The translations under genes were made by a program, and so were the position numbers. A stretch of 64,000 nucleotides of DNA from Nitrospirota bacterium (lineage in GTDB: Bacteria; Nitrospirota; Thermodesulfovibrionia; Thermodesulfovibrionales; UBA9159), in NCBI GenBank assembly GCA_023475105.1, contig JAMCWJ010000012.1:1-64000 (forward strand), given 5' to 3'. This document shows, in pieces, positions 9,328 to 49,973 of the stretch. The notes under the pieces were generated by a model. It saw only the letters and a program-made list of their open reading frames with translations. It was not told the DNA's origin and made no database searches. The stretch's first letter is position 1; each line of letters opens with the position of its first letter.

Positions 9328-12300
9328 CTATGTCTCTTCCCAATCTCTGCACATGAGTTCAGCCTGGCTCAGTACGGTCTGGGTCGCTTTCTCCTGTTTG
9401 TCGGGCGGATAGCCGTACTTGCGGAGAATGCGTTTCACAAGGGTCCTCAATTTGGCTTTAACGCTCTCCTTGACGGTCCAGTCAATGGTGACATTTTTTC
9501 TTACCGCATCCACAAGCTCGCGGGCGATAGTTTTGAGAGTCTCATCTCCAAGCACCTTCACCGCACTGTCATTGGTTTCCAGGGCGTCGTAAAAAGCAAG
9601 CTCTTCGTCTGAAAGATTCAGTTTCTCTCCCCGCTTGTGAGCTTCACGCATTTCCCTGGCAAGCTCGATCAGCTCAAGGATAACCTTCGCGGCGTCTATG
9701 GTGCGGTTCTGGTATTTCCTGATTGTCTGCTCAAGCATTTCAGCAAATGACTTCGACTGGACAAGGTTTCTCCTTGACCTCGTCTTTATCTCGTCATTGA
9801 GCAGCTTTTTCAGAACTTCGAGGGCGAGGTTTCGCTGCGGCATGTGCCTTACCTCTTCAAGGAACTCATCCGAGAGAATCGAGATATTCGGCTTCTTCAG
9901 GCCGGCAGATGCGAATATGTCGATAACCTCTTCCGAGGCAATGGCCTTTGATACGATCTGCTTTACGGCAGAATCGAGGATATAGGGTCCTTTACCCCCG
10001 TTCGTTGTATTCTTTGCGAGGGCAGCGCGGACAGTCTGGAAAAAGCCGACATAATCCCTGATCTCGAGCGCTTTCTCATGAGGCACGGATAGAGCAAAAG
10101 CCTTCGATAACTCTGTAACTGCCTGCATGAAACGAGATCTTCCATCTTCCTGCGTAAGGATGTGCTCCATTGCCTCTTTGATGACCGTCAGGCGCTCGGT
10201 GGGGGTACCGGTAAAAAATCGCGAATAGTCAAAGCCATGGAAAATAGAAGAAACGATCTCGAACTTTTCGAGCATAAGCGCAACAGCCTCTTCCTGGGGT
10301 ATGCCGGTTATGTCCCGATCATGTTCGGTGTAGTCGGAAAGGGCTTTCTTTAGATCATCAGCGATCCCAAGATAGTCAACGACAAGACCGCCCGGCTTGT
10401 CTTTGAATACCCTGTTGACCCTGGCTATCGCCTGCATAAGGCCATGGCCCTGCATCGGCTTATCGATATACATTGTATGAAGGCAAGGCGCATCAAAGCC
10501 CGTAAGCCACATATCCCTGACGATGACAAGTTTAAACCTATGCTCAGGCTTTCTTGAAAACTTTTTCGCCAGCTTCTCCCGGCGTGATTTGTTTCTGATA
10601 TGCTGTTGCCATTCGACCGGATCGGAGGCAGAGCCGGTCATGACGACCTTCAGGAAGCCCTTGTCGTCATCCTCGCTGTGCCAATCAGGTCTGAGTTTGA
10701 TGAGAGCGTTATAGAGGTCGACGCAGATGCGGCGGCTCATGCAGACGATCATGCCCTTTCCATCCATAGCCCCGAGCCTCTTTTCAAAATGCTGAACAAT
10801 GTCTTTTGCCGCAAGGCCGACGCGTTTTTCAGTCCCTACCATCGCCTCAAGCTGTGCCCATTTGCGCTTAAGCTTCTCCTTGGTGGTCTGTTCTTCGCCT
10901 TCGGTGACCTCCTCAAACTCCTGGTCGATCTTCGGTCTTTCCTCTTCCCTGAGTTCAAGTTTCGCAAGCCGGGCCTCGTAATAGATACGGACGGTTGCCC
11001 CGTCCTCTACTGCCCGTTGAATATCGTAGATGCTGATGTAATCCCCGAATACTGCCGGGGTGTTCCTGTCTGCTGCTTCGATCGGTGTTCCTGTGAAGCC
11101 GATGAACGAGGCGTTCGGGAGGGCGTCCCGGATATGCCGGGCAAAGCCGTCAATAAAGTCGTACTGGCTCCGGTGGGCCTCATCTGCGATGACAACGATA
11201 TTCCTGCGGTCAGAGAGTCTCGGATATTCTTCGCCCTTCTCCGGGAAGAACTTCTGCACTGTTGTGAAGACAACGCCACCTGATGCGACGCTAAGGAGCT
11301 CTTTAAGTTGTTCCCTGCTTTCTGCCTGGACAGGTGTTTGCCTTAGTAAGTCTCTACATCTCGAAAAAGTGCCGAACAACTGGTCATCGAGGTCATTTCG
11401 GTCTGTGAGAATAACAAGGGTGGGATTTTCCATTTTGGGATGCTGAATAACCTTTCCGGCATAGAAGGCCATTGTAAGGCTTTTCCCGCTCCCCTGTGTG
11501 TGCCAGACCACGCCTACTCGCTTGTCTCCCTTGGGCGATGCAGCCTCAATTGTGCATCCGACTGCTTTATTCACCGCATGGAACTGATGATATCCGGCTA
11601 TTTTCTTGATGATCTCCGAACCATCAACTTCAAACACAACGAAATACTTCAGAAGATCGAGAAATCTCCGCTTTTCGAATATGCCTTTGATCAATACCTC
11701 AAGCTCAGGTAGCCCCTTCGGAGCCAATTCATCTCCTGCTATAGTCCTCCAGGGCAGAAACCATTCCCAGTCAGCGGTCAGGGTGCCTGCCCGCGCCTCG
11801 ATGCCGTCTGAGGAAATGAGGATTTCGTTGTATGGGAAAAGAGAAGGAATCTCCTTCTTATATGTCTGGAGTTGGTTAAAGGCGTCTTTGGTCGTTGCGT
11901 TTTCGTCAGATGGATTCTTCAGCTCGACGACACCTAAGGGGAGACCGTTCACAAAGACTACAACATCAGGCCTCCTGTTGCAGTTCCCTTCAACTACTGT
12001 AAATTGGTTCACTGCAACCCATTCATTGTTTCCGGGGTCATCAAAGTCCACAAGCCAGACCTTATCGCCAACGATCCGGCCTTCCGAGTCTTTGTATTCG
12101 ACATCGATGCCCTCAGTGAGCATTTTATGAAAGTGGTGATTGTTGGCGGCTAGAAGGGGCGACTCATGGATAGTCCTCGAAAGCTTTCGGTACGCATCCT
12201 CGATTGCTTCTGATGGTATAGCAGGATTGATGTTCGCCAATGCGGCGCGAACCCTACCTTCGAGGATCACATCGGCATAGCTTGCCCTCTCAGCGAACAA

Positions 12301-12402
12301 TTCACCAGGAGCAATATCCGGCCCACTAACGACCGAATATCCCAGCTCCTTGAACCAGTCAAGGGTAGCTTGCTCGATAATGGATTCGGTTATGTTGTTC
12401 AT
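9328..12402 (-). CDS. hsdR: Type I restriction enzyme, R subunit
   Basis: ATP-dependent translocase and nuclease of the type I restriction complex, 1024 residues, full length. The N-terminal PD-(D/E)XK nuclease is intact ([11 protein letters not shown], then GVVELKNPS, about residues 142-165). It is followed by a superfamily 2 helicase with Walker [13 protein letters not shown], the DEAHRSQYD box, [10 protein letters not shown], and later [16 protein letters not shown] and QAIARVNR. The C-terminal helical part binds HsdM. The start at 12402 has GTGAG upstream. It is the last gene of the hsdM-ORF6N-hsdS-DUF3800-fic-hsdR row, but 166 bp separate it from fic, and that gap holds a small gene on the other strand. 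It may therefore have its own promoter. Confidence 0.95.
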
Positions 12403-12426
12403 CTGCTCACTGTTGTATAATAAATT

Positions 12427-12588
12427 ATGAAAAAGAAGTCTCTGAAAGAGACCAACCCCTATTTAAGAGACCCCGAAAAATATGAGGCTTCATTAACTGC
12501 AAGTGTCGTTACCTCCTCTGCGGTCGAGGGCATTCGGATAACAGCGGCGCAACTCCTGAAAAAGAGTCCTAAAGTCCGCCGCCACTAA
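12427..12588 (+). CDS. Small Fic-antitoxin-like protein (inhibitory-helix motif), convergent to fic
   Basis: A 53-codon gene, ATG 12427 to TAA 12588. The product begins [19 protein letters not shown] and contains TSSAVEGI, which fits the [S/T]xxxE[G/N] motif of the Fic-inhibitory helix (class I antitoxins such as VbhA carry it as a separate small protein). Its 3' end overlaps the 3' end of the fic gene by 20 nt on the opposite strand, and its start lies 24 nt from the hsdR start. A TATAAT (12416-12421) sits only 5 nt before the ATG, so the mRNA may be leaderless. Known class I antitoxin genes usually lie upstream of fic on the same strand, so this arrangement is unusual. The antitoxin role is inferred from motif and position. 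Confidence 0.6.
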
Positions 12589-13225
12589 TTTTCTCACTCG
12601 TCGCAATTATTTTCTCAAACAGTTTTTCCATCGGCTTATAGTCTCTATCTAATCCGCTACTGATTGCATCAAAATAATTCTTTCTCTTTTTGCCGGTGAT
12701 ATCTCTGAAGTTAAGCATCGGTAATCCGGCCTGAAAGGCCATAAGCGTTGAGAGCAGACGAGCGACCCTCCCGTTTCCCTCCCTGAATGGATGAATCAGA
12801 ACAAGTTCGACATGAACTATAGCCAATGCCTGAAATATCCGGTCCAGTGATTTGAAATTGCAGGGCGTATGTTTGCGAAGAGGGCCTTTCTCAAGCTCTG
12901 CCATCAACCGAGGGATATGCAGTGAGGCGGCAAACTGAAAACCATTCTTGCTGACATTCACCTGCCTGTATTCACCGGCCCACATGTAAATATCACACAG
13001 CCAAATCTTGTGCATTCTCCGTATGTCCTCTGCGGTAAAGCGGTGCCCGGTATCGTACATCCCGAGGAGTTTATCCGTTGCGGTCTTGAGAGCAACGGAT
13101 TCGGCCTCGTCCATCTCTCTTTTCAACTTTATGCCGAGCTTGTTTTTGAGAACACGTCCGCGGGAACCCGGTTCAAACTGGGCCTCAGTTAAAGCCGATG
13201 CGTCATAGCGATCTAAGGTTTTCAT
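12569..13225 (-). CDS. Fic family AMP-transferase (possible toxin)
   Basis: Fic-domain protein of 218 residues. The active-site motif HPFREGNGRVAR (about residues 138-149) matches the HxFx(D/E)GNGRxxR consensus of active AMPylating enzymes, and the flap NVSKNGFQFAA precedes it. I do not see an inhibitory (S/T)xxxE(G/N) helix in the protein's own termini, which fits a class I Fic controlled by a separate antitoxin; the 53-residue product encoded on the other strand carries that motif. It starts 3 nt after the DUF3800 stop, inside the type I restriction operon. It could poison the cell if restriction is disturbed. Target proteins are unknown. Confidence 0.85.
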   Translation of the reverse strand: MKTLDRYDASALTEAQFEPGSRGRVLKNKLGIKLKREMDEAESVALKTATDKLLGMYDTGHRFTAEDIRRMHKIWLCDIYMWAGEYRQVNVSKNGFQFAASLHIPRLMAELEKGPLRKHTPCNFKSLDRIFQALAIVHVELVLIHPFREGNGRVARLLSTLMAFQAGLPMLNFRDITGKKRKNYFDAISSGLDRDYKPMEKLFEKIIATSEKISGGGL

Positions 13226-13228
13226 ATC

Positions 13229-14137
13229 TTACGTTCTCAATTTGCACGGCGCTTTATCAGCTTCGTGCTGAGGCTCATACCACCAGAAATTAATCGGATG
13301 TTTTGCGTCCGGCGTTTTGAGACCCTTGTGCGTTTTCAAGCTCACGCCAAGCTTTTTACTTTTACATTTGTTATTGAATTCAAACATGACGCAACATCTT
13401 TCTTTATTTGATTTGCTCAGCTTTGGGAGACGTCCCTGTTCCATAGGGAATAAAGAACACTCCGCCTTCTTAGCTGCTTCCCAGGATTGGTAGGATGCGT
13501 AAGAGCTTCTTGAATATACGGATATGCCTGCAAAAAGATCAGCCAGTTGAACAAGCGGTTCCTGATGTGATTTGCAGGGTGAAAGCAATTCAATCCTGAA
13601 TTCTTGTTTCAACCTTAAAGCGAATTTGCCTTTTGTGAATAAGTCCCTTCGGATTTCGGTCTTTCTGCCGGCACAGTCCAAACAATCCTGAACAGAGTTC
13701 CATTTTAGTGCAGTATTCTCGTCAGGATATAGTGCCCAAATGCTGCCATCAGGCCACCGCTCGCAAAGAACATATTTAAGAAGGTGATAATACATCCGTT
13801 CGAGATTGGCAATGTCATCTCTTTTGGGGATTTTGTGTCGACTGTCTTCGGTATCCCATGTTAATACGTCTATTCTCAAAGAGCCATTTAATGCTTTCTC
13901 AATAGCGAAATCAATCATCTTTAGCGCAGCAAACCGCTCCCTTGCGCTCGCCAGTTTTTCCCATTTGAACTCACGGACCTCAGATTCTCTGAGCAATCTT
14001 TGCATTTCGTGACGGAAGACGTTCACGTTCTGTTGCGGTAGCGTTACCAATGCAATTCCACGATAGCGCCCTTCGTTATATCCTTTCTCATCAGCAAACG
14101 CTATATGACTCATCGCCTCTGCTTGTGTGGTGCTCAT
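13229..14137 (-). CDS. DUF3800 domain protein
   Basis: A 302-residue protein of the DUF3800 family, which has an RNase H-like fold and is common in defence islands. The N-terminal acidic motif region (IAFADEKG, about residues 12-19) and the C-terminal VQLADLFAG (about 197-205) match the conserved family blocks, so the presumed metal site looks complete, although the first motif reads DEKG where many members have DESG. It starts with an ATGA overlap on hsdS and is followed 3 nt later by fic, so it is translated with the restriction operon. Its activity is unproven; a nuclease role would be an inference. Confidence 0.75.
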   Translation of the reverse strand: MSTTQAEAMSHIAFADEKGYNEGRYRGIALVTLPQQNVNVFRHEMQRLLRESEVREFKWEKLASARERFAALKMIDFAIEKALNGSLRIDVLTWDTEDSRHKIPKRDDIANLERMYYHLLKYVLCERWPDGSIWALYPDENTALKWNSVQDCLDCAGRKTEIRRDLFTKGKFALRLKQEFRIELLSPCKSHQEPLVQLADLFAGISVYSRSSYASYQSWEAAKKAECSLFPMEQGRLPKLSKSNKERCCVMFEFNNKCKSKKLGVSLKTHKGLKTPDAKHPINFWWYEPQHEADKAPCKLRT

Positions 14138-15330
14138 GAAAGTTCAGCCTCAACAAACCTCTCCGCATCCTTCACCCTTATCTCCCCCGACAACAGCTTC
14201 GGCAGCAAGGCATCACGGATAGCAGCAAGGGTGCGGGATTCCTTCAGATTGATCACGACTCGATGGTGGAATCCCTCCGCTTGCTGATTGAAAACTTGTA
14301 GCACTCGAGCCGATGGAACAATTATCGGAATTGGCCGAAAGTTCCTTTTGCTGACTTCAAGAAATGTTGTACCATTTGCTCGTCCCTCAATGGTGTCCAT
14401 ATTTTCTCTTGCCCAATAAAGAACATAATAATTTGGCAACTCCTGATCACAAATCATGGCGATGAAGCCTTGATTGACTGCAACCGGAACTTCTGAAACT
14501 GCAAGATAACCTATTGGTGCGCGTGAGGATAATAGCACCGTGCCCTTCGGCAATAGACCTGAACTTATTTGCTGTAATCCCTTCTCGGTGATACGTCGCT
14601 CAGTTTCAAGCAGTATAGGACTTGAGAGAGAAGCCAGGTCTTTTGGAGTCGCCCAACAGAGAGAGCCGCTTTGCCAGAAGGTAGGCTCTTTCGTGCTTGG
14701 CGTGCTGCCACCCACGACTCTTACTTCATCACTGACTGGGGAAACCCTCCACCGCTTCGGAATCTTTCCAAGCGGTGAGTCCTGCCATTCTTTGTGAGGT
14801 CCATAGCCGGGAATGGGGTCGAAGTCCACGAACCACGACTTGAAGATCGCCCTCGCCATAGCCTCAAGCGTCTCATTCATTTTCCTGTTCAACTCGATTT
14901 TGTCATCCAATGCGCCGAGGATCGAGGCAATGGCTTTCTGTTCGGGGAGAGGAGGGACTTTGACGGGCAGATTATAAAAAGCATCACGGCTTGTAGAGGG
15001 AATAGCAGAGCCGCTGTCCATGCTATTTATGTCTTGTGTGAGGAGTTGATAATAAGCCCACTTCAGGTCAATGTCCGTTTTGGGCTCTAAATAGAAGGCA
15101 GTATCGATGACAAAGAATGGCTTCTTTGAGTAATGAACCCCCCGGTATGCGCCTTTGCGGCCGATGATCACGCCAGGATGCGGACATAGTGGCTCAGCAT
15201 GGCTGCCTATGACACCGTTTGTCCCATAAACAGGAAACGATCCGGCTCCGTGTTCATAGCCACGGAGTCCTTTACCATATTCAAGAGTGGCCAGTTCACC
15301 CCATCGGCACTCGCGCCATTTCGCCGTCAT
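14134..15330 (-). CDS. hsdS: Type I restriction enzyme, S (specificity) subunit
   Basis: DNA-recognition subunit of 398 residues that binds two HsdM and two HsdR subunits. It shows the usual arrangement of two target-recognition domains (about residues 1-110 and 185-350), each followed by a conserved helical region: PPLPEQKAIASILGALDDKI in the middle and RDALLPKLLSGEI at the C-terminus. The two TRDs differ, so a split asymmetric recognition site is expected. The start overlaps the ORF6N stop (ATGA), and its own stop overlaps the DUF3800 start. Recognition sequence cannot be predicted from sequence alone. Confidence 0.92.
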   Translation of the reverse strand: MTAKWRECRWGELATLEYGKGLRGYEHGAGSFPVYGTNGVIGSHAEPLCPHPGVIIGRKGAYRGVHYSKKPFFVIDTAFYLEPKTDIDLKWAYYQLLTQDINSMDSGSAIPSTSRDAFYNLPVKVPPLPEQKAIASILGALDDKIELNRKMNETLEAMARAIFKSWFVDFDPIPGYGPHKEWQDSPLGKIPKRWRVSPVSDEVRVVGGSTPSTKEPTFWQSGSLCWATPKDLASLSSPILLETERRITEKGLQQISSGLLPKGTVLLSSRAPIGYLAVSEVPVAVNQGFIAMICDQELPNYYVLYWARENMDTIEGRANGTTFLEVSKRNFRPIPIIVPSARVLQVFNQQAEGFHHRVVINLKESRTLAAIRDALLPKLLSGEIRVKDAERFVEAELS

Positions 15331-15869
15331 CCTTTCTCTACTTCCCTCCTGAACCCTATCTTCCTCTTCTTCGTCTCCGGCGGGCTCATGAGTTGCCGGA
15401 TCGCATCGAAGACGACCTTGAACTGCGAGTCGTACTTCTTTTCAAGATCATCGAGTCTTTTGGCAAGGTCTTTGTGAGATCCAATCATTTCGCGGAGCTT
15501 TACGAATGCCCTCACCACGTACACGCTCATTGCCACTGCTTGTTTACTGTTCAAAACCGTCGCTGCCATAATTGCACCGTGTTCAGTGAAAACCCACGGC
15601 AAAAAACGAGGATCGCGGTGCTTCTGTGAACCGGTCGCAATTTGCGACCGGTTCAAATCGCCACGTGACTTTATACCTTGCCATTCTTCAGCGGTCAACT
15701 GGAAGGCAAAATCTTCAGGGAATCTGTCCGAATTGCGTCTAATCTGCTCATTGAGCCTCTTGGTCGTAACTCCGTAAAGCTCTGCTATGTCGGCATCCAG
15801 CATAACCTTCTCGCCTCGTATCAGCAGAATCTTCCTCTCAATCATCTCAACTGGTATTAATGCTTTCAA
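15327..15869 (-). CDS. ORF6N domain protein
   Basis: A 180-residue protein with an N-terminal ORF6N DNA-binding domain (about 10-100). Family features are LIRGEKVMLDADIAELYGV, the RNSDRFPEDFAFQLT block and FTEHGAIMAATVL. The C-terminal third is charged and helical (KRLDDLEKKYDSQ), probably coiled coil. The best start is a TTG at 15869 right behind GGAGGGGAG; a weaker ATG follows at codon 9. It sits between hsdM and hsdS and overlaps hsdS by ATGA. ORF6N proteins are often embedded in type I operons, where a regulatory or anti-phage role is suspected but not shown. Confidence 0.85.
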   Translation of the reverse strand: MKALIPVEMIERKILLIRGEKVMLDADIAELYGVTTKRLNEQIRRNSDRFPEDFAFQLTAEEWQGIKSRGDLNRSQIATGSQKHRDPRFLPWVFTEHGAIMAATVLNSKQAVAMSVYVVRAFVKLREMIGSHKDLAKRLDDLEKKYDSQFKVVFDAIRQLMSPPETKKRKIGFRREVEKG

Positions 15870-15935
15870 CTCCCCTCCTTCTTTAAGGTCACAAATTGTG
15901 ATCTTAAACTAATCTTGAGGTTCCGAAATGGCACC

Positions 15936-17519
15936 TCAAAACCCGACCCCCCTCAAGTTCTTTCTTATAACCTTCTCAAGCTTTGCGCTCTCAGAAAACT
16001 GCTCTTCGAGCTTAGCGGTAAGCCTTTTCATTTTCTCATCAAAGGGCTCGTCATCGTCCTCGACATCCTCAGCGCCGACATAACGACCAGGTGTGAGAAC
16101 ATAGCCATGAGCCCGTATTTCCCCTATAGAAGCGCTCTTGCAGAAACCGGGGATGTCCTTATATTCGCCGGCTCCTTTTTCTCCGCGCCATGCGTGATAT
16201 GTCTGTGCTATCTTCATTATCTCTTCGTCGGAAAACTCCCTATGGGTCCTGTCGATGAGATCACCCATTTTACGGGTGTCTATGAACAGGGTCCGGCCAC
16301 TGCGATCCCGAAACTTGCCATTCTTCTTGCTCCTCGTGACAAACCAGAGACAGGCAGGGATCGGGGTCGTATAGAAAAGCTGGCCGGGAAGGGCAATCAT
16401 GCAGTCAACCAGATCGGCCTCGATGATGTTTTTTCGTATCTCTCCTTCTCCGGACTGGTTTGAAGACATGGAACCGTTGGCAAGGACAAAGCCCGCTATG
16501 CCGTTCGGCGAAAGATGGTGGATGAAATGCTGGACCCAGGCAAAATTGGCATTGCCTGCCGGCGGGATTCCGTATTTCCATCTCACATCTTCGCGCAACA
16601 GTTCGCCTTTCCAGTCACTCACATTGAACGGCGGATTGGCAAGGACAAAATCTGCCTTGAGATCCTTGTGCAGGTCTTGCCTGAAGGTGTCTGCATGATG
16701 AGAACCGATATTCCCCTCAATGCCTCTGATAGCAAGGTTCATATTGCAAAGGCGCCAGGTAGTAGGGTTTGATTCCTGACCGTAAACTGAGATGTCGCCC
16801 TTTCTTCCTCCGTGGGCCTCAACGAACTTATCTGATTGAACGAACATTCCGCCCGATCCACAGCAAGGGTCATAGACACGGCCTTTATAAGGCTCAATCA
16901 TCTCCACAAGGACCTTTACGACCGATTGAGGGGTATAGAACTCACCGCCGCCTTTGCCCTCTGCCGAGGCAAAGCGTCCGAGAAAATATTCATAGACACG
17001 GCCAAGGATGTCTTTTGACCGGCTCTCGGCATCACCAAGGCCGATAGTGCCGATCAGGTCGATAAGCTCGCCCAGGGTATGTTTATCCAGTGCGGGTCTT
17101 CCATAGTCCTTAGGAAGAACCCCTTTCAGCTTCGGGTTTTCCTTTTCGATAGCAACCATCGCATCGTCAACAATCTTTCCGACCGTCGGCTGTTTTGCGC
17201 TTGCACCGAGGTGAGGCCACCTGGCATCTTTAGGAACCCAAAAGATGTTTTCCGAAAGGTACTCGTCTCTGTCTTCGGTCACGCCATAACGCGCTTGTTC
17301 TTCCCTGACATAGTATTCACTCTTTGGATTGGATACAAGGGACAAGAGATTCTTATGCCGTTCTTCAAAAGCATCGGAGATATACTTGAGAAAGATGAGG
17401 CCGAGGGTAATGTGCTTGTATTCTGCGGGATCCATATGGCCGCGCATCTTGTCGGCGGCCTGCCACAGTTTCTCTTCGAAGCCAAGATTACCGCCGTTTG
17501 ATGTTTTCTTCGTTGCCAT
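15936..17519 (-). CDS. hsdM: Type I restriction enzyme, M subunit (N6-adenine methylase)
   Basis: N6-adenine DNA methyltransferase of 527 residues. The N-terminal HsdM helical domain begins around [17 protein letters not shown], and the catalytic domain carries SAM motif I ([10 protein letters not shown]) and motif IV ([10 protein letters not shown]). The C-terminal tail is a charged helix that contacts HsdS. It is the first gene of the operon and has a TATAAT promoter with an inverted repeat upstream (17564-17619). With hsdS it would form the modification enzyme and with hsdR the restriction complex; all three look intact. Confidence 0.95.
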
Positions 17520-44229: not shown

Positions 44230-46065
44230 ATGACTGCAAAAAAGATAAGAACGGGCGGTGAACTGAAGGCCGGGCATATCCGCGACTATATTAGCAATGA
44301 ACCGGTCAGGGCCACGCCTGAGGAGGTCGAGGCAGTCCAGGTTCTTTCACGGCGTTTGGTTGAAGATTTCGGTTATCCGAAGTCGCATATCCAGACACGT
44401 CCTCAACACCGCGTCAAGAAACGCCCGTCGGATGTGGAAAAATCATACCCGGTTGATATAGCCGTCTTTCATACATCGAAGAAAACAGACAGTGACCTGT
44501 TTATGGTCGCCGAGTGCAAGAAAAGGTACCGTAAGGACGGCGCAGAACAACTCAAGCTCTACATGGATATGTCCGCGGCCGAAGTGGGCGTATGGTTCAA
44601 CGGCGACGAGCATGAGTATCTTCGCAAGATCCATCATAAGGACGGCTCGCGCACGTATACGCCTCTCCCCAACATCCCGCGCCACGGCCAACGCATCGAG
44701 GACATCGGTCTCTTCGCGCGCAAAGACCTGAAAAAACCGTCCAACCTCAAGGCCGTGTTCCGCGATCTGCGTAATCATCTTGCCGGCATGACGACGGGCA
44801 TAACCCGTGACGAGGCACTGGCCCAGGAGATCATAAATATTCTGTTCTGCAAAATCCTCGATGAGCAGGAAACTGACCAGGATCAAACCGTGACATTCCG
44901 GGCAGGCGTCGGAGAAAAATCTGAGCAGGTTCGCGAACGCATTCTGGAACTTTTCGAGCGTGTCAAGACCGCGACATATGAAGATGTCTTCGACAAAAAC
45001 GATACGATCAGCCTCGACGCGGACAGTCTTTGTTACGTGGTCGGAGAGCTTCAGAACTACTGTGTCATGGAAGCTGACCGCGACGCTATTGGCGACGCCT
45101 TCGAGGTGTTCATCGGGCCGGCGCTGCGCGGGGCAGAAGGCCAGTTCTTCACCCCGCGCAACGTTGTCAAGATGATGGTCGAGATCTTGGACCCCAAGCC
45201 TGGAGAGAAGATCATCGACCCTGCTTGCGGCTCAGGTGGTTTCCTAATCGGAGCGTTGGAGCATGTGTGGCGGCAACTCAGAAGCCAGGCCAAGCGCAGG
45301 GGCTGGACGGAGAAACAGCTTTTCAAACGTGAAGTTGAAGTCGCCACAGACTGTTTTCGCGGTATCGATAAAGACTCGTTTCTTGCGAAGGTCTGCAAGG
45401 CATACATGGCGCTTGTAGGCGACGGACGTGGGGGCGTGTTTTGCGCGAATTCTCTGAGCAGGCCGGAGGAATGGAATCCTGTGATGCGCGACAAAATCGG
45501 CCTGGATCAGTTTGATGTAATTCTCACAAATCCGCCGTTCGGCAAGAAAATCGTCATCAAAGGCGAGGCGACCCTTTCTCAATACGACTTCGGACACAAA
45601 TGGACGCGGAATAAAGAGACAAAAGAGTTGGAGAAAACAACGACGCTTCATGAGGACCAACCGCCCCAAATCTTGTTCCTGGAGCGATGCTTACAGTTAT
45701 TGAAACCGAGCGGGAGATTGGGCATAGTGCTGCCTGAAGCAGTATTCGGGATGCCAACCTACGAGTATGTCGTAACCCATCTGCAGAAAAAAGTAAAGAT
45801 ACGCGGCATCGTTTCAATGCCCGAGCCGCTTTTCAAGACAAGCGGAAAAGGTGGTACCCATGCCAAGACATGCGTTTTGTTCTTGGAGAATACCCCGCCG
45901 CAGCCTGAAGAGGATTGGGACATATTTATGGCAGACGCCAAGTGGTGCGGACATGACTCAAGAGGCAACCCGACAATACGCAAAGATTCAAACGGAAAGG
46001 AAGTCCTTCTTGATGACATTCCGCTCGTAACCAAGAAATTCAAGGAGATCATCGGCTCATGGTGA
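44230..46065 (+). CDS. N6-adenine DNA methylase with N-terminal HsdR_N-like nuclease domain
   Basis: A 611-residue protein. Residues about 20-165 look like the type I R-subunit N-terminal nuclease fold: YPVDIAVFH and LFMVAECKKR supply the Asp and the ExK. The remainder is an HsdM-type methylase with helical HsdM N-domain, SAM motif I DPACGSGGFL (about residue 335) and motif IV TNPPFGKK. It forms a pair with the specificity protein that overlaps its stop by 7 nt. A separate helicase-type R subunit is absent, so cleavage would have to come from this fused domain or from the third gene (47588). Ordinary HsdM proteins lack the N-terminal part. Confidence 0.85.
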   Translation: MTAKKIRTGGELKAGHIRDYISNEPVRATPEEVEAVQVLSRRLVEDFGYPKSHIQTRPQHRVKKRPSDVEKSYPVDIAVFHTSKKTDSDLFMVAECKKRYRKDGAEQLKLYMDMSAAEVGVWFNGDEHEYLRKIHHKDGSRTYTPLPNIPRHGQRIEDIGLFARKDLKKPSNLKAVFRDLRNHLAGMTTGITRDEALAQEIINILFCKILDEQETDQDQTVTFRAGVGEKSEQVRERILELFERVKTATYEDVFDKNDTISLDADSLCYVVGELQNYCVMEADRDAIGDAFEVFIGPALRGAEGQFFTPRNVVKMMVEILDPKPGEKIIDPACGSGGFLIGALEHVWRQLRSQAKRRGWTEKQLFKREVEVATDCFRGIDKDSFLAKVCKAYMALVGDGRGGVFCANSLSRPEEWNPVMRDKIGLDQFDVILTNPPFGKKIVIKGEATLSQYDFGHKWTRNKETKELEKTTTLHEDQPPQILFLERCLQLLKPSGRLGIVLPEAVFGMPTYEYVVTHLQKKVKIRGIVSMPEPLFKTSGKGGTHAKTCVLFLENTPPQPEEDWDIFMADAKWCGHDSRGNPTIRKDSNGKEVLLDDIPLVTKKFKEIIGSW

Positions 46066-47549
46066 ATATTCAACAAGACCATCTTGGATTTGCCCTGCCG
46101 AATAGTAAAATTCGCAATGGCGTTTTTATCCCGAAATTTTACAATCCGGAATTATTCGCACGTCTCAGAAGACTTAAAGCGACGCATCAACTACTATCCG
46201 TTAAAGATTTAAAAGACGACGGTTATCTTTCCGTTGCTACTGGTGATGAAATAGGAAAGATGGCATATGGAACAGGCGAGATACCCTTTATAAGAACTTC
46301 TGATATCGTCAATTGGGAAGTCAAAGCTGATCCTAAACATGGAGTGAGTGAGGAACTATACTCCGCCTACTCTGCCAAGCAAGACGTGAGAGAAGGTGAC
46401 ATATTCTTTGTACGCGACGGCACCTATCTGATCGGTCAAGCTTGCCTTCTTACCAAACATGATCTCCCATGTCTTTATCAATCGCACATCCTCAAGTTTA
46501 GATTGACTAAGGCATCACCGATTTCGCCGTATCTGTTTCTGGCCTGCTTGAATGGGCCGACAGTTAAGCAGCAAATACGTTCAACTCAATTTACAGCGGA
46601 CATCATAGATACTATCGGCAATAGGTATCTTGATCTGATGATACCCGTACCCAAAGAAAGGTCCCTTCGTGTCCGCATTGCTCATGAAGTGGAATTAAAT
46701 ATAACCAAGCGAATTTCTCTTCGAGAAAGGATACGCAAAATTCCCCTGTGGGTTGAAGGACAACTCAAAAGTCTTGATGCTCCAGTTCCCGAAGACTGGT
46801 TATGGCGGACTGAGTTGGTCGGCAATCCGGGTTTTATACAAACGCTGTCGGATATTAAGGGCAGTATTTTTATTCCGAAATATTACGATCCGCAACTCGA
46901 TGACACCTTAAAAGGATTGAAACGAACGCATGAATTGGCAACACTGAATGACCTACTCAAAGACAGCGTTATCACTTGGGATACGGGAATCGAGATCGGC
47001 AAAATGGCCTATGGCACGGGGCATATACCTTTTATCCGGACATCGGATATATCGAACTGGGAACTCAAGGGTGATCCGAAACAAAGTGTCAGCGATGAGA
47101 TATATGAGGAAAACAAACAGGATGTCCAAGCGGAGGACATTTTTGTAGTTCGTGACGGAACCTACCTCGTTGGCACTTCCTGCATTTTGACGGAAAACGA
47201 TACGAAGATTCTATACTGTGGCGGTCTCTACAAGCTGCGCGTTAAGGACAAGGGAAAGCTTGATCCCTATCTGTTGCTTGCTATCCTGAACACGCCGATA
47301 GTAAGGCGACAGATGCGCGCCAAGCAGTTCACCCGTGACATTATCGACACTCTGGGCAAGCGCTTGTTTGAAGTGGTACTGCCGATTCCAAAGAATACTG
47401 AGATTCGTAAGAAAATCGCTGACGAGACTCGGCGTGTGATTGAGAAACGCGTTGAGCTTCGTAATCGTGCCAGGGAAATTGCGTTTGAAGTTGAGGGGAT
47501 CAAATTCGAAAAGATGACTGTACTGGAATCTTTAGAAGGAGAAATCTGA
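46059..47549 (+). CDS. Specificity (S) subunit built of two near-duplicate halves
   Basis: A 496-residue DNA-recognition protein with two copies of the same unit, residues about 20-240 and 265-480. Matching blocks are EIGKMAYGTGEIPFIRTSDI versus EIGKMAYGTGHIPFIRTSDI, VRDGTYLIG versus VRDGTYLVG, and FTADIIDTIGNRYLDL versus FTRDIIDTLGKRLFEV. Each ends in a charged helix. Type I S subunits normally carry different TRDs; near-identical TRDs would favour a symmetric split target. It overlaps the methylase gene by 7 nt. Base composition is lower in GC than the surroundings, suggesting transfer. Confidence 0.82.
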   Translation: MVNIQQDHLGFALPNSKIRNGVFIPKFYNPELFARLRRLKATHQLLSVKDLKDDGYLSVATGDEIGKMAYGTGEIPFIRTSDIVNWEVKADPKHGVSEELYSAYSAKQDVREGDIFFVRDGTYLIGQACLLTKHDLPCLYQSHILKFRLTKASPISPYLFLACLNGPTVKQQIRSTQFTADIIDTIGNRYLDLMIPVPKERSLRVRIAHEVELNITKRISLRERIRKIPLWVEGQLKSLDAPVPEDWLWRTELVGNPGFIQTLSDIKGSIFIPKYYDPQLDDTLKGLKRTHELATLNDLLKDSVITWDTGIEIGKMAYGTGHIPFIRTSDISNWELKGDPKQSVSDEIYEENKQDVQAEDIFVVRDGTYLVGTSCILTENDTKILYCGGLYKLRVKDKGKLDPYLLLAILNTPIVRRQMRAKQFTRDIIDTLGKRLFEVVLPIPKNTEIRKKIADETRRVIEKRVELRNRAREIAFEVEGIKFEKMTVLESLEGEI

Positions 47550-47587: not shown

Positions 47588-48163
47588 ATGACCACGGAAG
47601 GAGAAAGGACGATCGAAACGGACAATCGCTCAATCGGGCGAGGAAAACATCAAATCTCGAAGAGTCGGTCTTATCCCGTTACTCCAAATCCCATGTATAC
47701 CAAGACGATGATTCTCGATGCAACGCCGCCAATTGTGCGACGGTATGCGATGAATGAAAAGCAATTACAACTTGCCATTCTGCGGTCTAATCGGCTTGTC
47801 GATGCATTTTTGCACTTGACCTGTTATTCGATTCAGAACAATTTACGAGCGACCGTTCGAGGCATGGGACAGACTGAAATAGATGAGATTTATATCGGAC
47901 TCGATCATCAGTTTCGGCAGTTTGTCATCCCCGTACAGGCAAAGGGAAAGGATGAGCAGATAGGAATTGTGCAAATCGAGCAAGATGTGGCGGTTTGTAA
48001 GACCAAATTTCCGTCGCTCATCTGCCGTCCGGTTGCTGCCCAGTTTGTAGAGAGGGACTTGATCGCCCTGTTCGAGTTCGAACGCAGCGAAGGTATGGTA
48101 TCGATCAAGGACGAGAAACACTATCGCATTGTCCCAAATGAAATGCTCGCGATGAAGAGATGA
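47588..48163 (+). CDS. Putative PD-(D/E)XK-type nuclease of the restriction island
   Basis: A 191-residue protein I do not recognise with certainty. The middle part GQTEIDEIYIGLDHQ followed by FVIPVQAKGKDEQIGIVQIE looks like a PD-(D/E)XK core (acidic residues, then QAK). The C-terminal FPSLICRPVAAQFVERD is well ordered, while the first 50 residues are basic and poorly structured, so the N-terminus may be truncated against longer relatives. It follows the S gene by 38 bp on the same strand and may supply cleavage. Alternative: a stand-alone hypothetical in a defence cassette. Confidence 0.55.
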   Translation: MTTEGERTIETDNRSIGRGKHQISKSRSYPVTPNPMYTKTMILDATPPIVRRYAMNEKQLQLAILRSNRLVDAFLHLTCYSIQNNLRATVRGMGQTEIDEIYIGLDHQFRQFVIPVQAKGKDEQIGIVQIEQDVAVCKTKFPSLICRPVAAQFVERDLIALFEFERSEGMVSIKDEKHYRIVPNEMLAMKR

Positions 48164-48228: not shown

Positions 48229-48738
48229 ATGGCAGAAGAGTTAAAATATAATCCAGAGACGGTGAAAACAGTTTTGAATGTCCTTCAAAAAGAATTTGAG
48301 GCTGAAGAAGGAAGGCACAAATTTATTACAACGAAAGTTCAAATGATGTTGACTCTTGCCGGTATTTTGCTAACGACGATTATCTTTCTTTTTAGAACAG
48401 CGATCGAGGAAAATTGTTATTGGAAATTGAATTCAGGATTATTAACATTGTCAATACTGATAATTATTTATGCGATCTGCCTTTTCATATACGTCATAAA
48501 AGTGAAGACTTTCAGGAGAATAAAATCTGATGCCCTTGTATTTAATGCTGAGTTAGAAAAGGCTGCAACGGAAGTTGAGAGCAGACTGATTTCTACCTAT
48601 CATGAAGCCATAGAGGCTAACCGACCTATAGTTGATTATATGGCTAAAGTTTTCCAAAGAGGAACGATATTGATTGTTATCTCAATAATTCTTATTGTCT
48701 GCACTATTATTTTGGTCATTCTCACTATGAACACTTGA
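48229..48738 (+). CDS. Small membrane protein of unknown function in defence island
   Basis: A 169-residue protein with three hydrophobic helices (about 39-56, 68-92 and 147-167) and a charged helical stretch of about 50 residues between the second and third. The N-terminal 35 residues are acidic and helical. The layout recalls two-helix membrane effectors found beside defence genes (SLATT-like), but no motif proves it. AT-rich codons match the rest of the island. It is followed 16 bp later by two small hydrophilic genes, probably in one transcript. Confidence 0.6.
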   Translation: MAEELKYNPETVKTVLNVLQKEFEAEEGRHKFITTKVQMMLTLAGILLTTIIFLFRTAIEENCYWKLNSGLLTLSILIIIYAICLFIYVIKVKTFRRIKSDALVFNAELEKAATEVESRLISTYHEAIEANRPIVDYMAKVFQRGTILIVISIILIVCTIILVILTMNT

Positions 48739-49095: not shown

Positions 49096-49973
49096 ATGGC
49101 ATTTACATCTGCAATCGATAGAACCATAGAGCACAAGCTCTTCGACGCTCTTGTCTTGTACTTCAAACATGAGAACTTCAAACTCGGTCATGGTGTTACT
49201 GACGCCCAGATTGACACAATATGCAAGGTTCTTTTGTACAGTCAGGCTGAAGAAAGCACACTGAATGAATACCGCAAGGAAGAACTTGAGATAGTCGATT
49301 ACCTCCACCTCATCTCGATTGAATTACGGAAGCAGTTGGGCCAGTACGCCACGCCCGCTGCTATCGTCAGACGCATCCTCAGGTCCGTCGGGTTCGCGTC
49401 ATCGAAAGACATTCTCTCCAAGAGACTTATAGACCCTGCATGCGGTTCAGGCGCTTTTTTAGTAGAAGCGGTTCGCGTTTACTTAAGCGCCCTCAAGAAA
49501 ACCAAGACGCCGATGCCAGAGGGGAAAGCATTATGGTTCAGCGCGTAACAGCGGACGAGCAGCCTTCGCGCATTGTGGCCTGCATATCCGAGAAGTTTTT
49601 CAAGAAGACACAAACGGGATATTTCGTTGAGAATCACCTCAATATTGTTCAACCCGGGACAAACTCAAAAGTTGATCTGTACTTTGTTCTCGGCATTCTT
49701 AACTCGGAGATCGTCGAGTTCTTTTTCCGCGCCATGAACGGCAACACGCAGGTTTCCGCCACAGAACTGAATCTTCTCCCCATACCTGTCGGCAGATACG
49801 AACGGGAAATTGCGGCCATTGCTCGAAGGATACAGGATATGAGGGATCATGAGAAAAAAGGCGCGCTTATGGAAGTCTTAAACGGAGAGGTCGCAAGGGC
49901 ATATGGGTTGGATAACGCCGATCTCACCTTCGTCAGGAAATTTCTCTCGGACAGGAGAAAAAATGACAATTGA
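49096..49973 (+). pseudogene. Type IIG/Eco57I-like methylase remnant with internal deletion
   Basis: The first frame (49096-49548) gives 150 residues with LRKQLGQYATPAAIVRRIL and SAM motif I DPACGSGAFLVEAV, then stops soon after PMPEGKALWFSA. A second frame (ATG 49533 to 49973, 146 residues) reads as the C-terminal target-recognition part: NHLNIVQPGTNSKVDLYFVL and LNSEIVEFFFRAMNGNTQV, LLPIPVG. The central catalytic region with the NPPY motif is missing. A large deletion, with a frame change at the join near 49535, has left two ends of one methylase gene. Activity is unlikely. Confidence 0.7.

What the first reader, a model, noticed from the sequence alone, without database searches (positions are those of the whole stretch)
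46059..47549. S subunit with two nearly identical target-recognition halves
Both halves contain EIGKMAYGTGxIPFIRTSDI, VRDGTYL and FTxDIIDTxG in the same order. Recent internal duplication would give a symmetric bipartite recognition site, which is rare for type I enzymes.
Basis: partly seen in the sequence, partly recalled or inferred. Interest (0 to 1): 0.55.

Follow-up and report, generated by a model that had tools for sequence, protein, structure and literature searches.

The report
Two-domain restriction enzyme reader, nearly symmetric
A Nitrospirota bacterium carries a two-gene restriction-modification enzyme whose DNA-reading subunit is built from two anciently duplicated, about half-identical domains; they share most of their conserved residues, but a small patch that lines up with DNA-reading positions in a solved relative differs the same way in every relative, so the target site is probably almost, rather than exactly, palindromic.

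Summary
Observation: real, at the stated coordinates. All three motifs occur in both halves. The halves are 51% identical over 225 aa, against mostly 20-32% in ordinary S subunits. "Nearly identical" holds for the motifs only. "Recent duplication" is wrong: nucleotide identity is 54%, only 37 of 114 shared residues use the same codon, and first and second halves form separate lineages in relatives across many phyla.

What it is: not type I. The upstream gene is a nuclease-methyltransferase fusion whose best solved match by sequence and by fold is the type IIB enzyme BsaXI. No third gene is conserved. This is a BcgI/BsaXI-like RM + S system.

Symmetry: 49 columns conserved in both halves carry the same residue. 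Only four differ: QSH versus CGG, and A versus R, fixed in essentially all 23 proteins. The QSH/CGG patch aligns with a DNA-contacting residue of BsaXI. Single-TRD relatives fused to the same kind of RM mostly carry QSH..Q. I predict a quasi-palindromic split site, not a perfect palindrome. A perfectly symmetric two-TRD S is already known in BstXI (PMC4335341).

The parts
44230..46065 (+). RM subunit, 611 aa: N-terminal PD-(D/E)xK nuclease domain (HSDR_N_2) fused to an N6-adenine DNA methyltransferase
   Evidence: Pfam HSDR_N_2 and N6_Mtase; D76, E95, K97 invariant in 23 relatives; best PDB match RM.BsaXI by sequence and by fold
44338..44679 (+). Nuclease domain of the RM subunit (residues 37-150; YPVDIAVF ... 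AECKK)
45076..45948 (+). Methyltransferase domain of the RM subunit (residues 283-573, NPPFG motif)
46059..47549 (+). S (specificity) subunit, 496 aa, TRD1-CR1-TRD2-CR2; its start overlaps the RM stop by 7 nt (46059-46065)
   Evidence: AlphaFold2 model pTM 0.83; fold matches to S subunits
46083..46652 (+). TRD1 (about residues 9-198)
46659..46754 (+). CR1 helix (residues 201-232), predicted dimerisation arm
46830..47390 (+). TRD2 (about residues 258-444)
47397..47489 (+). CR2 helix (residues 447-477), predicted dimerisation arm
46479..46487 (+). TRD1 patch Q141-S142-H143, near-invariant in first halves
   Evidence: S142 aligns with BsaXI contact D376
46596..46598 (+). A180 of TRD1, invariant in first halves
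47217..47225 (+). TRD2 patch C387-G388-G389, near-invariant in second halves
47334..47336 (+). R426 of TRD2 (equivalent of A180), invariant in second halves

Best explanation
The two genes encode a BcgI/BsaXI-like (type IIB-like) restriction-modification enzyme, expected as (RM)2S. Shown by sequence and model: a PD-(D/E)xK nuclease plus N6-adenine methyltransferase in one chain, and an S chain with two homologous TRDs and two long helices. Inferred: the two TRDs lie in inverted orientation on a split site; each positions one RM copy, which methylates an adenine on each strand and cuts outside the site when it is unmodified. Because the TRDs share nearly all their conserved residues, the two half-sites share most of their bases in inverted order. 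Because QSH/A in TRD1 and CGG/R in TRD2 are strictly kept, and the patch aligns with a DNA-contacting residue, the half-sites probably differ at one or two positions. The site is then quasi-palindromic, not a perfect palindrome.
For: RM fusion with invariant nuclease residues and BsaXI as best solved match by sequence and fold. RM + S are the only genes recurring across about 25 loci. S fold confirmed. Of 53 columns conserved in both halves, 49 are identical and 4 differ (QSH/CGG, A/R). Equally diverged subgroups of the same half show only 0-2 mild fixed differences. S142/G388 aligns with BsaXI contact D376 by two methods, while contact R351 aligns with R119, the same in both halves (PMC11997821). 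Spacing of 142, 180 and 182 equals that of PacII contacts Q291, R329 and N331 (PMC9613975).
Against: No methylation motif is known for any member I could read. S.BsaXI is distantly related and the second contact loop is uncertain by about two residues. Related TRDs can read the same bases with different residues, and BstXI shows two similar, non-identical TRDs with an exactly symmetric site (PMC4335341). Cutting on both sides of the site was not tested.
Confidence: 0.5

Rival explanations
1. Perfectly symmetric recognition, as in BstXI: both TRDs read the same half-site and the site is an exact interrupted palindrome. The QSH/A versus CGG/R difference is neutral, structural, or reads the same bases in another way.
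For: 49 of 53 doubly conserved columns are identical. Single-TRD relatives on similar RM chains exist and, if they act as homodimers like HaeIV (PMC3874165), must have symmetric sites. M.BstXI is a measured precedent (PMC4335341), and TRD1 duplication in BsaXI gives symmetric ACN5GT (PMC9159934).
Against: Four radical differences are fixed across many phyla, three of them at a position aligned with a DNA contact; equally diverged same-half subgroups lack such differences.
Confidence: 0.3
2. The two TRDs read clearly different half-sites, as in BcgI, CspCI or most type I enzymes; the resemblance is in scaffold only.
For: Halves are only about 50% identical, and positions at or near DNA contacts differ.
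Against: Ordinary S halves with different half-sites are mostly 20-32% identical. The BsaXI-contact equivalent R119 and most conserved loop residues are the same in both halves.
Confidence: 0.12
3. A BstXI/AhdI-like system in which a separate type II endonuclease, ORF 47588-48163, cuts and M + S only methylates.
For: The downstream ORF matches PADLOC REase_II PDLC03404, E=4e-63.
Against: Its relative sits next to a cytosine methyltransferase. The window copy lacks the first 86 residues. No relative locus of RM + S carries it, and RM has its own conserved nuclease.
Confidence: 0.05

Closest known systems
BsaXI / BcgI (type IIB, RM + S)
   Same: Nuclease-MTase fusion plus separate two-TRD S; best sequence and fold match
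   Different: The listed RM + S enzymes (BcgI, BaeI, CspCI, BsaXI, NgoAVIII) have asymmetric sites (PMC3874165, Table 4), and the BsaXI TRDs differ strongly from each other (PMC11997821); here the TRDs are 51% identical. RM is 611 aa against 916 for BsaXI
M.BstXI (CCA N6 TGG)
   Same: One S chain with two similar, non-identical TRDs (PMC4335341, PMC3874165)
   Different: BstXI uses a separate type II endonuclease; here the nuclease is fused to M. S.BstXI itself was not available for comparison
HaeIV (2 R~M~TRD, GAY N5 RTC)
   Same: Same architecture as the single-chain, single-TRD relatives G310, G057, G253, G362 and G219
   Different: The window enzyme has two TRDs on a separate S chain; no sequence comparison with HaeIV was made
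MADS system MAD2 / MAD5
   Same: Best NCBIfam profile for both proteins
   Different: Far below curated cut-offs (391 against 720, and 65.5 against 400 bits); no other MADS genes found nearby

Membership tests
Type IIB (BcgI/BsaXI-like RM + S) | PD-(D/E)xK nuclease and gamma N6-MTase in one chain | tested here: met
Type IIB (BcgI/BsaXI-like RM + S) | Separate S chain with two TRDs and two dimerisation helices | tested here: met
Type IIB (BcgI/BsaXI-like RM + S) | No further subunit required: no conserved third gene | tested here: met
   (gene content only)
Type IIB (BcgI/BsaXI-like RM + S) | Cuts on both sides of the site; 2RM:1S; m6A on both strands | not testable with these tools
   Needs biochemistry or a methylome
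Type I R-M | HsdR translocase gene with the M and S genes | tested here: not met
   No HsdR beside M-S in the window, no recurring third gene in relatives; HsdR found near one locus only, L025. The window's hsdR at 9328-12402 sits with its own M and S
Type I R-M | Stand-alone HsdM without a nuclease domain | tested here: not met
   HSDR_N_2 nuclease domain fused to M
BstXI-like symmetric two-TRD S | Two similar TRDs in one S chain | tested here: met
BstXI-like symmetric two-TRD S | Exactly symmetric methylated motif | not testable with these tools
   No motif data; the fixed QSH/CGG and A/R difference speaks against it
BstXI-like symmetric two-TRD S | Separate type II endonuclease partner | tested here: not met
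   ORF 47588-48163 is truncated, linked elsewhere to a cytosine MTase, and not conserved with RM + S
MADS | MAD2 and MAD5 above curated cut-offs plus other MAD genes | tested here: not met

The most novel reading that the evidence does not exclude
The family is a natural series from one-domain, homodimeric, symmetric recognition (R~M~TRD with QSH..Q) to two-domain, asymmetric recognition (RM plus TRD1-TRD2 with QSH..A and CGG..R) on one RM chassis, with the change of specificity confined to about four positions. It would show how the split-site, heteromeric readers of type I and IIB enzymes arise from symmetric ancestors, and give a small residue-to-base code to test.
Probability: 0.35. Interest if true: 0.6.

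Novelty: new member of a known kind. Interest (0 to 1): 0.4.

Why it matters
Loenen et al. propose that two-TRD S subunits arose by fusion of once separate TRDs (PMC3874165). Here one- and two-TRD versions of one TRD family sit on closely related RM chains, and the only residues fixed differently between the two domains fall at or near positions that contact DNA in solved relatives. One methylome from a two-TRD member and one from a one-TRD member would test that model and could link about four residues to one or two bases. As an R-M system it is an ordinary new member.

Tried and rejected
Recent duplication: rejected by codon and nucleotide identity and by the tree. Type I membership: rejected. 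REase ORF 47588-48163 as partner: rejected. MADS: rejected by curated cut-offs and missing genes. Direct sequence match of S to the PDB gave nothing and the profile search only weak hits, so contacts were transferred through an alignment to the published S.BsaXI sequence (PMC9159934). The phage collection held only distant relatives. A search for MADS papers gave nothing useful. I could not infer the recognition bases.

Full report
Observation. ORF 46059-47549 encodes a 496-aa S protein with the three quoted motifs in both halves. Local alignment of the halves gives 114/225 identical residues (51%), score 579 against 33 +/- 5 for shuffles. In about 35 S-sized ORFs taken from loci hit by Methylase_S in related genomes, halves are mostly 20-32% identical where they align at all (some of these ORFs may not be S genes). 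The repeat is real and unusual. "Nearly identical" applies to the motifs only.

Age. The halves share 53.7% of nucleotides, and only 37 of 114 identical residues use the same codon. No direct DNA repeat between them is detected. In 23 full-length proteins (the window's and 22 relatives) from Nitrospirota, Myxococcota, Planctomycetota, Chloroflexota, Bacillota, Pseudomonadota, Actinomycetota, Ignavibacteriota and others, first halves resemble first halves (mean 50%) and second halves second halves (52%) more than first resemble second (43%). First halves fall on one side of a well supported branch (98/99). The duplication is old.

What the system is. The gene upstream, overlapping by 7 nt, has an HSDR_N_2 nuclease domain and an N6-MTase domain. 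D76, E95 and K97 of the nuclease are invariant in the 23 proteins aligned. RM.BsaXI, a type IIB enzyme, is its best PDB match by sequence, and the three BsaXI entries are its best matches by fold. The S model (pTM 0.83) matches type I S subunits, PacII S and BsaXI S. RM and S are the only genes that recur broadly in the relatives' loci; among the large flanking ORFs checked, a type I HsdR was found only in L025. A complete type I system in the same window, with its own R, M and S (9328-17519, minus strand), is separate.

The neighbouring REase-like ORF, 47588-48163, is not the partner. Its homologue on a Klebsiella plasmid is a 269-aa endonuclease beside a cytosine methyltransferase. The window copy matches residues 87-257 only, and no relative of the RM-S pair has it.

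Symmetric or not. Across the 23 proteins, 53 columns are conserved (at least 21 of 23) in both first and second halves. In 49 the residue is the same. In four it differs: Q141 S142 H143 against C G G, and A180 against R. Further members, including copies on viral contigs, keep the same order, QSH/A first and CGG/R second. As a control, two subgroups of first halves that are about as diverged (45.5% identity, against 43.7% between halves) show only two fixed differences (L/A and K/R), and second-half subgroups show none. Divergence alone does not explain the patch.

Where the patch lies. In an alignment of the published S.BsaXI sequence (PMC9159934) with this family and other S proteins, the BsaXI contact R351 falls on R119, the same in both halves of the window protein, and the contact D376 falls on S142 of TRD1 and G388 of TRD2. 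Two alignment settings agree on both. The loop holding BsaXI T416 and M417 falls within about two residues of position 180 (contacts from PMC11997821). In PacII, contacts Q291, R329 and N331 (PMC9613975) have the same spacing as 142, 180 and 182 here; this last point is spacing only.

Single-domain relatives. Several Nitrospirota genomes carry one chain of 833-856 aa with an intact nuclease motif, the MTase and one TRD; the RM part is 54-80% identical to the window's. Most of these TRDs carry QSH..FTQD; one from a Verrucomicrobia genome (L029) carries CGG..FTRD and nests among second halves. In a quick RM tree, one-TRD and two-TRD systems interleave, so TRD modules appear to have moved between related RM chains; that tree has moderate support.

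Interpretation. The likely enzyme is (RM)2S with inverted TRDs on a split site whose halves mostly mirror each other but differ at the base or bases read by the patch. Type I S subunits place tandem TRDs in inverted orientation (PMC3874165), which is why similar TRDs imply mirrored half-sites. The exact-palindrome rival remains open: M.BstXI has two similar TRDs and a symmetric methylated motif (PMC4335341), and TRD1 duplication in BsaXI gives a symmetric site (PMC9159934). Only a motif call can decide.

Limits. No member has a known motif among what I could read. S.BstXI and HaeIV themselves were not compared. Homodimer action of the single-TRD relatives is inferred from HaeIV. Cleavage was not tested.

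Noticed in passing
window 9328-17519 (-): A complete type I system: hsdM 15936-17519, hsdS 14134-15330 (ordinary, dissimilar halves) and hsdR 9328-12402, with ORF6N (15327-15869), DUF3800 (13229-14137) and Fic (12569-13225) genes between them.
   Followed up: partly
window 47588-48163 (+): Remnant of a type II endonuclease, missing its first 86 residues; relatives on small enterobacterial plasmids sit beside a cytosine methyltransferase.
   Followed up: yes
window 49096-49973 (+): Two overlapping ORFs carry the start of an N6-MTase and a TaqI_C end; this looks like a methyltransferase gene with an internal deletion.
   Followed up: partly
window 48229-48738 (+); L094:307-849 (-): A DUF2721-like membrane protein lies downstream of the RM system both in the window and beside the fused RM gene of G057 (the Pfam match is below its cut-off).
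   Followed up: no
L008:3290-3916; L094:3696-4322; L093:3757-4452: A LexA-like S24 repressor gene lies about 235-257 nt upstream of the RM gene, same strand, in three Nitrospirota loci of both architectures; possible SOS-linked control, not tested.
   Followed up: partly
L011:3396-4148; L096:973-1725; L029:3486-4268; L010:3375-4166: A radC gene lies directly upstream of the RM gene in three loci scanned (L011, L096, L029), and L010 has an ORF in the same homology cluster.
   Followed up: partly
L017, L018, L084-L087: Copies of the RM-S pair or its S gene occur on viral contigs (L084-L087), and in Rhodobacter next to a terminase large-subunit gene (L017; L018 has an ORF of the same cluster), so the family travels on phages.
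   Followed up: partly
L027:7026-8360; L088:2442-4133: Decayed copies: L027 has about 1.3 kb inserted inside TRD2; on a Pseudomonas amygdali plasmid (L088) the TRD ORF abuts an IS5 transposase gene.
   Followed up: no
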